Source: Mycolicibacterium brumae
GTDB lineage: Bacteria > Actinomycetota > Actinomycetes > Mycobacteriales > Mycobacteriaceae
DNA: 64,000 nucleotides
Assembly (NCBI RefSeq): GCF_025215495.1
Contig: NZ_CP104302.1
Span: 1,860,001-1,924,000, forward strand
Reading direction: 5' to 3'
Shown: piece by piece, positions 1 to 11,516 of the stretch
Layout of the letters: each line of letters starts with the position of its first letter
Position numbering within the stretch: position 1 is the stretch's first letter
Program-made: the position numbers and the translations under genes
Notes under the pieces: generated by a model
The model's input: the letters and a program-made list of their open reading frames with translations, nothing else
Database searches by the model: none
Told to the model about the DNA's origin: nothing

Positions 1-624
1 GTCACGATGCAGCGGGCGACCGAGATCCGAGGTCCGGATCGTGAAACCTGCTTTCCGCTCGGCGAAATGGGCCGTGCAGCCGAAGTAGGCGCGGTAGTCC
101 GCCGCCGGCCCGAGGGGGTCGTGTGGAAAGTGCACCGACACCGCCGACCAGTCCGATCCCATCAGGAACCGCAGCACGCGCAACGACACCCCGAGCGATA
201 GTTCTGTGCTCTGCGGTGCTGGCGGCGTGTGCTCGAGAAGGAACTCAAACACAACGAAGGATCGTTGAGGATCGTCGAGGGGTTCGACGTGAATACCGAT
301 CGCCGGGCTGTACGCGGCCATGTAGGTGCCGAAGATTTCTAACGCGTCGGCGACGGTGGCGGCGGTTCGGGCGGCCACCCCCACGGGGCCGAGGACCTCG
401 ATACCCTGCAGAGCAGCCAGTCGTCGACCGAAATCCGTTGTGGCAGTGGCGGTAGCTGCGGACTCGATCGCGTGCAGGACACCGCGAAACGGGAGGAACG
501 CATCGTAGTCGCCCACATCGGCGGCTCGGATGCCCGCCGCGCGCAGCAGACGGGCCGGATCACCACCCAGCTGTGTCACCAAGCGTCGATAGTTCACCAG
601 GGCGGTGCCACGGACCACAGACAT
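1..624 (-). CDS. AraC-family transcriptional regulator, N-terminal part (runs off left edge)
   Basis: The reverse strand is open for 208 codons from the ATG at 624 to base 1, so the C-terminal HTH domain lies outside the window. The visible protein begins MSVVRGTALVNYRRLVTQLG and continues with the pattern of the arabinose-binding-like sensor domain (PF12625 type) of AraC regulators that control lipid or aromatic catabolism: a DPARLLRAAGI stretch near residue 20, LGPVGVAARTAATVADALE in the middle and LGVSLRVLRFLMG later. No in-frame start lies upstream of 624. It is divergent from the cupin-sulfatase operon at 790, so it is the obvious candidate activator. A perfect inverted repeat (631-645) sits just before its start codon. 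Family call is firm; inducer unknown. Confidence 0.82.
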   Translation of the reverse strand, partial: MSVVRGTALVNYRRLVTQLGGDPARLLRAAGIRAADVGDYDAFLPFRGVLHAIESAATATATTDFGRRLAALQGIEVLGPVGVAARTAATVADALEIFGTYMAAYSPAIGIHVEPLDDPQRSFVVFEFLLEHTPPAPQSTELSLGVSLRVLRFLMGSDWSAVSVHFPHDPLGPAADYRAYFGCTAHFAERKAGFTIRTSDLGRPLHRD

Positions 625-789
625 GACCGGGACTGTCGCACAGTCATCATCCGAATGTCCCGAGATGATAAAAAATCGTCCTCTAAAGGCAAGACCGGGG
701 CGTGGCTGGCACCCGATAGTTGACGTCGACAGTTACACCGACATTACCGCCCCGGGCACGCCGGGGGCCCACTCCCGAAGGACCCTGCG
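625..789. promoter_or_regulatory. Divergent promoter region with inverted repeat GACTGT-N3-ACAGTC
   Basis: This 165-bp space separates the AraC regulator (leftward) from the cupin operon (rightward). A perfect inverted repeat, GACTGT at 631-636 and ACAGTC at 640-645, lies directly before the regulator's ATG and may be an autoregulatory site. A near-palindrome centred on GACGTC lies around 722-733, closer to the operon. Promoter hexamers were not identified with confidence. Confidence 0.35.
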
Positions 790-1350
790 ATGACGCTTAC
801 CGTCGAACCCACAACCGCCACAACTGGTTCGGGGGCAGTGCTGCCATTGGTCGCCTTGCCCCAGACCGAGCTGCTGACCATCAACGAGAAAACGATCCCG
901 CTGATCACTGACTCGCTCAGCGAGGGTGTCCACGTCAAGCCGCTGCGGCTGGACCTGGAGGCCGGCTGCTGGGTGGTTCTGGCCACCTTCAGTCCCGGGG
1001 CCACGGTTCCGCTGCACTACCACACCGGTGTGGCCGAGGTGTACACCATGTCGGGCAGCTGGCACTACCTGGAATACCCGGACCAGCCGCAGACCGCCGG
1101 CTCCTACATGTACGAACCGGCCGGCTCGGTGCACACCTTCGTCTGCCCGGAAACCAACACCGAGGACACCACGCTGTTCATCCGCGTGGAGGGCGCCAAC
1201 ATCAACTTCACCGAGGACGGGCAGTTCCACTCGATCCTCGACACCACGATGATCCGCCACCTGGTCACCCAGCTCGCCCAAGCCCGCGGCCTGGGGGCGA
1301 TCAACTACCTCACCGGCGGTGCCGCCGGCTTCACCGCATCGAAACCGTAA
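790..1350 (+). CDS. Cupin, 2,4'-dihydroxyacetophenone dioxygenase-like
   Basis: A 186-residue single-domain cupin. The metal-ligand pattern is visible as HYH (His76, His78), Glu83 and His115 in the GSVHTF segment, the classical 3-His/1-Glu Fe or Mn site. Overall length and the LHYHTGVAEVYTMSGSWHYL region resemble ChrR-type cupins annotated as 2,4'-dihydroxyacetophenone dioxygenase, which cleave aromatic ketones. No signal peptide, so cytoplasmic. First gene of the AraC-divergent operon, followed after 13 bp by an SDR. The substrate is not determinable from sequence; the neighbouring oxidoreductase, hydrolase and sulfatase suggest catabolism of a sulfated organic compound (inference). Confidence 0.8.
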   Translation: MTLTVEPTTATTGSGAVLPLVALPQTELLTINEKTIPLITDSLSEGVHVKPLRLDLEAGCWVVLATFSPGATVPLHYHTGVAEVYTMSGSWHYLEYPDQPQTAGSYMYEPAGSVHTFVCPETNTEDTTLFIRVEGANINFTEDGQFHSILDTTMIRHLVTQLAQARGLGAINYLTGGAAGFTASKP

Positions 1351-1363
1351 GGGGCACCATCTC

Positions 1364-2194
1364 ATGTCTGCATATCGAGTAGCAATCACCGGCGGCGCCC
1401 GCGGCATCGGCCGCGCGACCGCAGAGGCGTGTCTCCGGGCCGGAATGTCGGTCGTGATCGGCGATGTCGACGGAGCGGCATGTTCGGCCGTCGCCACCGA
1501 ACTCGGTGGGGGAACGGTCGGGCTCGCACTGGACGTGCGCGACCCGGCCGGCTTCGAGGCATTCCTCACCGAAGCCGAACAGCAGGCTGGCCCACTGGAT
1601 GTTCTGGTCAACAACGCCGGCGTCGCGCCGATCGGCAGGTATGTCGACGAGAACCCGCGGGATACGCAGCGGCTGATCGATATCAACATCGGCGGCGTGC
1701 TCACCGGCACCCGGCTAGCCTTAGAGCGGTTCGGCCCCCGCGGCCACGGGCACATCGTGAACCTGGCATCCTCGGCCGGACAGATCGCCACCGCCGGTGG
1801 CGCTACCTACGCGGCGACCAAGCACGCCGTCGTCGGGTTCACCCGGGCGATCCGCGCCGAGACCCGCGGCACCGGCATCCGTACCACGATCGTGATGCCC
1901 GGCCTGATCCGCACCGACATGATCGCCGGATTCGACAAGCCGCGTGGCACCAGGATTGTCGGACCGCAGGCCGTGGCCGACGCCATCGTCGCGGCGCTGC
2001 ACACCGGCCGCGAGGAGGTATTCGTGCCCCGCGAACTCGGGCCGATCGCCCGGCTGATCGCCGGCACACCCCCTGGCATCGCCGATCGGCTGAAAAAAGC
2101 CCTCCAGGCCGATTCGGTGATGATCCACGCCGATATGGGCGCTCGCGCTGCCTACACCCAACGGGTGGAAGAAGTGAAAGACATTGTGCAATGA
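1364..2194 (+). CDS. Short-chain dehydrogenase/reductase (SDR)
   Basis: A 276-residue classical SDR. The cofactor motif TGGARGIG is at residues 9-16, NNAG at 83-86, and the catalytic Ser136, Tyr149 and Lys153 (YAATK) are all present, so the enzyme should be active with NAD(P). A GDVD segment after beta-2 favours NAD. The start at 1364 was chosen over an upstream ATG at 1319 that lies inside the cupin gene, because homologous SDRs begin a few residues before TGG. It overlaps the next gene by ATGA, a sign of translational coupling. Likely oxidises or reduces an alcohol/ketone in the operon's pathway. Confidence 0.9.
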   Translation: MSAYRVAITGGARGIGRATAEACLRAGMSVVIGDVDGAACSAVATELGGGTVGLALDVRDPAGFEAFLTEAEQQAGPLDVLVNNAGVAPIGRYVDENPRDTQRLIDINIGGVLTGTRLALERFGPRGHGHIVNLASSAGQIATAGGATYAATKHAVVGFTRAIRAETRGTGIRTTIVMPGLIRTDMIAGFDKPRGTRIVGPQAVADAIVAALHTGREEVFVPRELGPIARLIAGTPPGIADRLKKALQADSVMIHADMGARAAYTQRVEEVKDIVQ

Positions 2195-10987: not shown

Positions 10988-11110
10988 AACCCCGCCGGTG
11001 GCGGCCACACCCCCATGGGCAGATTCATGGCCGCCACCGGGCAGTTCCTAATGACCACCCACGGGCAGTACACCTGTCCGCCCACGGGCAGTTTCAGATG
11101 ACCGTTGACA

Positions 11111-11350
11111 CTCAACATCCTCGCTGCCCGAGAAGGCCGCGGATCCACCGTCGTCACCAGCCAATTCGACCCCGAAGACTGGTACCGATCCCTACACGAC
11201 GCCGTCATCGCCGAATCGATCCTCAACCGCATCGTCTCCACCGCAGAACTGGTCCAACTCGACGGACCCAACATGCGCCGACACGGCCACGAGACCGAGA
11301 CCGAGACCGAGACCGAGACCGAGACCGAGACCGAGACCGAGACCGAGTAG
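11111..11350 (+). pseudogene. istB: istB of IS element 1, 3' fragment
   Basis: From the second copy of CTCAAC (11111-11116) the frame reads LNILAAREGRGSTVVTSQFD and continues to the usual IstB ending DGPNMRRHG, so it joins seamlessly to the fragment ending at 8478 if IS element 2 and one duplication are removed. The extreme C-terminus is a Glu-Thr repeat from nine GAGACC units, which is not typical of IstB. An apparent TTG start at 11105 lies inside the IS end and is not real. Confidence 0.9.
11291..11347 (+). repeat. (GAGACC)9 hexamer repeat at 3' end of istB
   Basis: Nine exact GAGACC units plus GAG encode (Glu-Thr)9-Glu directly before the TAG stop at 11348-11350. The perfect array indicates recent expansion by slippage. 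Confidence 0.92.
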
Positions 11351-11458
11351 ACAACGCGGGCGTGGGGACCGCTACCCCATCCCCGCGCCCGCGCTACCAC
11401 TTCGCCACACACCCGCTACCGAAAGCTCCGGCTAAACAACACTCACCTCGGAACGGTC

Positions 11459-11516
11459 ATCTCATCTGAGCTGACACACCGCACGTCGGCTGCGTCAGCT
11501 CAGATGAGAACGGACA
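11459..11516 (-). other. Right end of Tn7-like transposon A: inverted pair of TnsB-type sites
   Basis: Two 15-bp arms form a perfect inverted repeat: CTCATCTGAGCTGAC at 11461-11475 and GTCAGCTCAGATGAG at 11494-11508, the latter running into the terminus TGAGAACGGACA (ends at 11516). Transposon B has the same layout (inverted TTCTCATC site, then direct site ending TGAGAACGGACA), but the distance from inverted site to terminus is 68 nt there and 58 nt here, close to one helical turn. The CTCATC core is shared while the rest of the site differs, implying a related but distinct transposase. Confidence 0.7.

What the first reader, a model, noticed from the sequence alone, without database searches (positions are those of the whole stretch)
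1..11516. A second, related Tn7-like right end puts the arylsulfatase operon on another transposon
TGAGAACGGACA at 11505-11516 is identical to transposon B's right terminus, and the inverted middle site is at the same place but 10 bp (one helical turn) closer. With the IS removed, the predicted third site falls within 1 bp of a matching sequence at 6056. The outer site sequence differs (CTGAGCTGAC instead of GAATCTGGGG), implying a different TnsB.
Basis: partly seen in the sequence, partly recalled or inferred. Interest (0 to 1): 0.85.

Follow-up and report, generated by a model that had tools for sequence, protein, structure and literature searches.

The report
Orphan Tn7-like end inside another island
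A genuine but left-over end of a Tn7-type jumping gene lies beside an arylsulfatase gene, and what has recently carried that gene between bacteria seems to be a different, recombinase-driven island.

Summary
The right end at 11516 is real: terminal 12-mer, inverted middle site, weak third site. A right-end model built only from elements found without its help (B and an M. intracellulare plasmid element) finds it at E=7.4e-7 in G424 and 2.2e-5 here. The 10-bp-shorter spacing is real and nearly matched by a 226-bp mini-element in M. neglectum. The "IS removed" argument is confirmed by nature: genome G424 carries the same DNA without the IS.

An intact second transposon was not found: no left end in the 51 kb to the left, and in the genome one tnsA and one full tnsB (both B's) and no other A-type site. 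In G424, 99.8-99.99% identity runs straight across 11516 from -669 to 15366, with different flanks beyond both limits. The unit that moved is therefore a 10.7-kb island ending in a tyrosine-recombinase module. A is a relic inside it; arylsulfatase as its former cargo is inferred.

Of wider interest: in 25 of 34 distinct insertions of the family (B included) a palindrome CGTCACNGTGACG lies 35-99 bp outside the left end, although five genomes hold only 4-14 exact copies each.

The parts
11505..11516 (-). terminal 12-mer of orphan right end A (TGTCCGTTCTCA read inward)
11494..11510 (-). outermost TnsB-type site TTCTCATCTGAGCTGAC
11459..11475 (+). inverted middle site, 16 of 17 identical to the outer site; 18-bp gap (28 in B)
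6056..6072 (-). weak third site, in place in the IS-free allele of G424
11517..11521 (+). CGTCG next to the end; would be one half of the 5-bp duplication, partner not found
6074..11438 (+). IS21-like insertion splitting end A; ACACT at 6069-6073 and 11439-11443
8479..11112 (+). second IS21-like element nested in the first (istA 8670-10208, istB 10205-10987); limits approximate
3652..6027 (+). arylsulfatase, stop codon 28 bp from the third site; probable former cargo
3060..3443 (+). DUF1330 protein
   Evidence: on the G424 copy
1429..3063 (+). alpha/beta hydrolase
1..624 (-). AraC-type regulator (gene extends to -422, outside the window)
   Evidence: on the G424 copy
11752..11909 (.). IS3-family remnant
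11951..13690 (-). 579-aa protein of the recombinase module (no family match)
13626..13973 (-). 115-aa HTH protein of the module
   Evidence: on the G424 copy
13970..15085 (-). tyrosine recombinase (Phage_integrase) of the module
15313..15366 (.). conserved right terminus of the recombinase island; left terminus is at -669, outside the window
15630..15642 (.). palindrome CGTCACTGTGACG, 40 bp outside B's left end
15683..22985 (+). transposon B, complete, GGTGG at 15678-15682 and 22986-22990
15779..16516 (+). B TnsA (NF033179, 5e-85)
16523..18601 (+). B TnsB
18589..19617 (+). B TnsC (TniB)
19580..20560 (+). B TniQ-like protein: Pfam TniQ only E=0.42; tblastx 46-47% over two pieces to G427's TniQ gene, itself 8e-7
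20617..22743 (+). B cargo, alkyl sulfatase

Best explanation
End A is a genuine right end of the mycobacterial clade of TnsA/TnsB/TnsC/TniQ transposons to which B belongs, of a sub-type with its own site sequence and a compact array. It is a relic: left end and tns genes are gone. Shown: the end array; the absence of a left end and tns genes in the sequence examined; and that the DNA from -669 to 15366 (minus the later IS insertions) is a discrete 10.67-kb unit found at 99.8-99.99% identity in a second species with other flanks. Inferred: that unit is moved by the tyrosine-recombinase module at its right end; a transposon A had inserted in or beside such an element with arylsulfatase as right-end cargo; the island's left limit at -669 (or a deletion) cut off the rest. 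The arylsulfatase thus changed vehicle from a Tn7-like transposon to a recombinase island.
For: Right-end HMMs that leave A out find it: 7.4e-7 and 2.2e-5 from two ends found without A, 1.7e-12 and 3.2e-12 from five. The left-end HMM finds B's left end in 104 kb of this genome and 60 kb of G424, and otherwise only cross-hits to the known right ends at E 1e-5 to 0.005 and chance-level matches (E 0.47 and up). Three copies of the 12-mer, 1 TnsA and 1 full TnsB match in the genome. Identity to G424 across both sides of 11516 with different flanks at -669 and 15366. The last ~54 bp before 15366 recur in 8 of 10 other module loci (L055-L064) and in G427; in 6 of those 8 likeness to G424 stops within 1 bp of that point. 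In G427 the same locus lacks the island and has about 1 kb of other DNA. B, G427, G470, J2, G544, Millisia and the M. intracellulare plasmid element show 5-bp duplications, and G424 holds the unoccupied G427 site, so the family transposes in the ordinary way.
Against: The 579-aa module protein matches no Pfam or NCBIfam family and no excision circle was seen. In 2 of the 8 loci (L055, L061) likeness runs 102-136 bp past the supposed right terminus. The island's left limit rests on two genomes. Nothing proves that arylsulfatase entered with A. The third site is weak. A left end too degenerate for the HMM, or further left than 51 kb, is not excluded by the HMM; the genome-wide 12-mer search argues only against an exact one.
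Confidence: 0.8

Rival explanations
1. A is a complete non-autonomous Tn7-like element (cargo only, no tns genes) whose left end lies further left and which a related TnsABC moves in trans.
For: Elements of 226 bp (M. neglectum), 676 bp (M. sp. J2) and 1292 bp (Millisia) with two ends and 5-bp duplications exist.
Against: No left end in 51 kb left of 11516 here, nor in 33 kb left of the end in G424; the exact 12-mer is absent elsewhere; both genomes carry the same truncated context.
Confidence: 0.1
2. A is one half of a transposon that fell apart in this genome only, by IS-mediated deletion on the left.
For: Two segments that recur many times in other genomes (IS-like) lie just left of -669 in this genome.
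Against: G424 has the same left limit next to different DNA that it shares with G427, so the loss predates the island's spread.
Confidence: 0.05
3. The array is a chance likeness or an unrelated operator palindrome.
For: The 12-mer alone is not rarer than chance at 2 mismatches; the 17-mer site occurs by chance in a viral contig's coding sequence.
Against: Ordered array with the conserved TGCGGTG spacer; HMM matches with A held out.
Confidence: 0.02

Closest known systems
Tn7-like transposons of the actinobacterial TnsA type (NCBIfam NF033179; PMC8649781 describes an Actinobacteria-dominated TnsB clade as not experimentally characterised)
   Same: End A has the right-end array; B has TnsA, TnsB, TnsC, a TniQ-like protein and a 5-bp duplication, and so has the G427 element with a clear TniQ. 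Whether this clade is that paper's second clade was not tested.
   Different: A lacks left end and tns genes; its array is one helical turn shorter and its sites differ from B's. The target palindrome appears in none of the passages I read.
Tn7
   Same: tnsABC order, arrays of sites at both ends (PMC8649781, section 6 read), 5-bp duplication, insertion at a set place relative to a recognised sequence (recalled)
   Different: B has three sites at each end with the middle right-end site inverted; the presumed target lies outside the LEFT end, whereas Tn7's lies beyond its right end (recalled).
Tn554/Tn558-type tyrosine-recombinase transposons
   Same: Recombinase gene plus a second large and a small gene next to one end; GATGTA 3 bp from the island's left limit in G424 (core from a passage of PMC7843796)
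   Different: In this genome GATGTA lies some 30 bp from the limit and the 579-aa protein has no family match; membership not claimed.

Membership tests
Tn7-like transposon (element A) | right end with terminal TGT and an array of TnsB-type sites | tested here: met
Tn7-like transposon (element A) | matching left end | tested here: not met
   none in 51 kb; no exact 12-mer elsewhere in the genome. One-mismatch 12-mers elsewhere were not each examined
Tn7-like transposon (element A) | own tnsA, tnsB, tnsC, tniQ | tested here: not met
   only B's tnsA and tnsB in the genome; tnsC and tniQ not searched genome-wide
Tn7-like transposon (element A) | 5-bp target duplication | tested here: inconclusive
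   only one side known (CGTCG, 11517-11521)
Tn7-like transposon (element B) | TnsA, TnsB, TnsC, two ends, 5-bp duplication | tested here: met
Tn7-like transposon (element B) | TniQ/TnsD target selector | tested here: inconclusive
   326-aa protein: Pfam TniQ E=0.42; tblastx likeness to G427's TniQ gene, itself 8e-7
tyrosine-recombinase island (-669 to 15366) | same two limits at different loci | tested here: met
   two genomes
tyrosine-recombinase island (-669 to 15366) | recombinase gene beside one end, end sequence conserved among copies | tested here: met
   (8 of 10 module loci)
tyrosine-recombinase island (-669 to 15366) | excision and integration by that recombinase | not testable with these tools
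   needs a bench assay or reads of a circular form
Tn554 family | three tnp genes and GATGTA core at the junction | tested here: inconclusive

The most novel reading that the evidence does not exclude
The clade to which A and B belong finds its target by a short palindrome. CGTCACNGTGACG (core of a weaker AATTCGTCACWGTGACGAATT) lies 35-99 bp outside the tnsA-side end in 25 of 34 distinct insertions of autonomous and mini-elements on chromosomes and plasmids, so TniQ, or a protein bound to the palindrome, guides insertion. A is a fossil of one such insertion that a recombinase island has picked up.
Probability: 0.7. Interest if true: 0.65.

Novelty: new variant of a known kind. Interest (0 to 1): 0.5.

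Why it matters
For A: a case with a readable order of events (loss of the left end, then island transfer, then IS insertion) in which a catabolic gene probably passed from one class of mobile element to another. For the clade: PMC8649781 says (passage) that its second TnsB clade, dominated by Actinobacteria, has no experimentally characterised member. If this clade belongs there, a rare 13-bp palindrome at a narrow distance from one end gives it a directly testable target rule, and mini-elements of 226-1292 bp point to the minimal ends. A itself is only a new (relic) member of a known kind; the 'variant' grade rests on the target rule.

Tried and rejected
Looked for A's left end by exact 12-mer in the genome, by up to 2 mismatches in 104 kb, by site matrix and by left-end HMM: none. 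One search lists one-mismatch 12-mers elsewhere in this genome and in G424 at numbers near or above the reversed-pattern control; I did not examine each. CGTCG directly before TGTCCG occurs once exactly in the 104 kb (39339) but without any site following. A-type sites at up to 1 mismatch: 2 of 397 genomes of the order (this one; a single site in G323) and 3 of 396 of the genus (this one, G424, and a single site in G538). Among 72,556 plasmid records: 2 weak partial hits at E=7. In viral contigs: 1 contig, L156, whose two matches lie in coding sequence without the rest of the array: chance. A's right flank was compared with the recombinase module in the hope of an unoccupied site; only 65 bp from 11552 on are alike, not reaching the junction. 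In 14 fetched arylsulfatase loci (80-82% identity, chosen from a longer list) no terminal 12-mer at up to 1 mismatch was found. Tn554 membership considered, left open.

Rows and parts left out: of the 16 stretches I examined 13; the three from Nitrospiraceae, Acidobacteria and Gammaproteobacteria were set aside unread. In one search, 20 of 396 genomes were not scored by the tool. In one search, 15 of 49 rows were dropped: 10 without a recognised left end, 5 with under 150 bp of flank (one also a duplicate). Of these, L199 has the palindrome at 61 bp, and L173 and L194 have it at 85 and 126 bp; none is in the 25. The 9 misses are L175, L191, L192, L193, L198, L207 (possibly a false left end), G427, G470b (394 bp away) and Millisia. 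L177 and L178 have like flanks and may be one ancestral insertion; L202, L203 and L094 are three insertions of one element.
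Full report
WHAT WAS CLAIMED. A right end identical in its last 12 bp to transposon B's lies at 11516, with a middle site 10 bp closer, a third site revealed by removing an IS, and a different site sequence; hence a second Tn7-like transposon carrying the arylsulfatase operon.

THE END IS REAL. The window is positions 1860001-1924000 of a one-contig 3.99-Mb genome. The 12-mer occurs exactly three times in it: 11505-11516 and B's two ends at 15683 and 22985. The site 16-mer occurs only as the inverted pair at 11460 and 11494. Right ends of relatives came from likeness to A or a pattern shaped on such ends: G427 (M. austroafricanum DSM 44191), G544 (M. neglectum CECT 8778), M. 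sp. J2, M. iranicum. An HMM from these four plus B, without A, finds A at 3.2e-12 here and 1.7e-12 in G424. Because those four were found with A's help, I repeated it with only B and the M. intracellulare plasmid element, found by TnsA: A still scores 2.2e-5 here and 7.4e-7 in G424, next after B itself. The conserved TGCGGTG beside the middle site is present in A. The outer-to-middle gap is 28 bp in B, G427, J2 and iranicum, 18 in A and 19 in the M. neglectum mini-element (counted), where the alignment places one 10-bp gap.

THE IS REMOVED, BY NATURE. Genome G424, another species of the genus, matches window -669 to 6073 (99.985%) and 11439 to 15366 (99.82%) and lacks what lies between. This genome has ACACT on both sides of the insertion and G424 one ACACT. 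The insertion is an IS21-like element (6074-11438) with a second IS21-like element inside it (about 8479-11112). In G424 the third site stands 1 bp from where B's spacing puts it; its score of 4.7 bits is reached by 30 of 103,983 positions on one strand. So it is probably real but degenerate.

THE SECOND TRANSPOSON WAS NOT FOUND. No left end is detectable from -40000 to 11459, nor in G424 from 3350001 to the end, by matrix or by an HMM of six left ends. The genome has one TnsA match and one full TnsB match, both B's, plus one weak 114-residue match elsewhere. CGTCG before TGTCCG occurs once exactly in the 104 kb scanned, at 39339, without any site following.

WHAT MOVED INSTEAD. Both limits of the G424 identity, -669 and 15366, have unrelated flanks in the two genomes. 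The stretch between (10,666 bp in G424) carries an AraC regulator, a hydrolase, DUF1330, the arylsulfatase, end A, an IS3 remnant, and at its right end a module of a 579-aa protein, a 115-aa HTH protein and a tyrosine recombinase. The module is listed at 80-86% over 2.6-3.3 kb in 14 other genomes of the genus and at lower identity in more (376 of 396 genomes scored). The last ~54 bp before 15366 recur in 8 of the 10 module loci compared and in G427; in 6 of the 8, likeness to G424 stops within 1 bp of that point, in two it runs on for 102-136 bp. G427 has the G424 locus without the island: about 1 kb of other DNA, then the same 54-bp terminus. So the island, not a Tn7-like element, seems to have carried the arylsulfatase between these two species. 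In 4 of 4 fetched loci with the AraC-hydrolase-DUF1330 group the sulfatase is absent, and in 14 of 14 fetched sulfatase loci the hydrolase is absent; 4 of these 14 do have an AraC-like stretch near the sulfatase. The island thus looks like a patchwork, and the sulfatase, 28 bp from the third site, is the fairest candidate for A's cargo. B's cargo (alkyl sulfatase) likewise ends close to its right end, about 140 bp from the inner site.

ORDER OF EVENTS (inference). Insertion of transposon A; loss of its left part, perhaps when the island's left limit was set; spread of the island; IS insertion in this lineage; and insertion of B about 0.3 kb beyond the island. Tn7 shuns DNA that already holds its own ends (recalled); B lying 4.2 kb from end A fits, but does not prove, that B's TnsB does not read A's sites.

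THE FAMILY. B (GGTGG), G427 (CTTGC), G470 (GCACG), an M. intracellulare plasmid element (GCCGG), and mini-elements of 226 bp (AATGG), 676 bp (TCTAC) and 1292 bp (GGTTC) show 5-bp duplications. G424 holds the unoccupied site of G427's copy with one CTTGC. B's TnsB is 89% identical to that of the M. aubagnense plasmid element, which has B-type sites, and 71% to G427's, which has TTGATCTGAC-type sites. A's site has 2 differences from TTCTCATTTGATCTGAC and 5 from B's TTCTCATCGAATCTGGG. A B-like TnsA is found in 148 of 396 genomes of the genus at E<=0.001, many of them distant.

A TARGET PALINDROME. Upstream of B and of two of three plasmid elements looked at I noticed CGTCACNGTGACG (the third, L095, lacks it). 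Tested on the left ends in hand: of 34 distinct insertions with a recognised left end and at least 150 bp of flank, 25 have it (up to 1 mismatch; 20 exact) 35-99 bp outside the left end. Without the three that suggested it (B, the M. aubagnense plasmid, the M. intracellulare plasmid) it is 22 of 31. On the right-end side 1 of 12 flanks (60-400 bp) has it, B's, with 1 mismatch at 132 bp; a further exact one lies some 456 bp beyond the right end in L080. Background: 3 matches at up to 1 mismatch in 213,887 bases of other loci; exact copies number 4, 7, 4, 14 and 5 in five whole genomes. Around the core the 25 sites lean to AATTCGTCACWGTGACGAATT. Two copies stand right after RelE/ParE-like toxin genes (L202 by annotation, J2 by likeness to it). 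Of 7 palindrome loci whose neighbouring ORFs I scanned, 4 have a named neighbour: an integrase (L162), a TniQ gene (L158), a DUF2637 gene (L165) and a ParB-like gene (L160, the occupied G470 site); 3 have none. What binds there is unknown. A literal search of the paper library for six spellings of the palindrome found one unrelated paper. Passages found by term in PMC8649781 (plus its section 6 in full) and in PMC10293859 show no such site; other papers were seen only as listings with the start of the abstract, apart from passages of PMC7843796. A's left side being lost, the rule cannot be checked for A; the only exact palindrome from -40000 to 64000 is B's.

VERDICT. Observation confirmed; interpretation partly supported. 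A is a relic right end in a recombinase island. The wider family result deserves follow-up.

Noticed in passing
window 15630-15642; L186, L094, L202, L203, L075, L070, L072, L073 and others: Palindrome CGTCACNGTGACG lies 35-99 bp outside the left end in 25 of 34 distinct insertions of this Tn7-like family: a likely target signal.
   Followed up: yes
G544:C79:25493-25718; L075:5411-6086; L069:61-1352: Mini-elements of 226, 676 and 1292 bp with both Tn7-like ends and 5-bp duplications, presumably moved in trans. The content of the two larger ones was not read.
   Followed up: partly
L070, L072, L073, L074, L076, L080 (M. chlorophenolicum DSM 43826): Several copies of G427-type ends, four of the six loci at contig starts, suggest a multi-copy element.
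   Followed up: no
G424:C1:3391013-3397106 and G427:C5:466725-472779: A second, distant tns locus (TnsB 33-34% to B's) stands some 9 kb from end A in G424 and close to the Tn7-like element in G427: a possible hot spot.
   Followed up: no
L095, L204, L205, L206, L207: In these 5 of 7 plasmid loci with more distant TnsA, the tnsA gene starts 214-300 bp upstream of the mobF relaxase gene; perhaps a different target. L204/L205 and L206/L207 share one TnsA each, so fewer than five events may be involved.
   Followed up: no
window 12129-15366; L055-L064, L154, L155: Recombinase module (integrase, HTH protein, 579-aa protein) widespread in the genus at up to 86%, with one conserved end and other DNA to its left.
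   Followed up: partly
window 11290-11349: Short CGAGAC tandem repeat near the end of the outer IS; like repeats match in many genomes of the genus.
   Followed up: no
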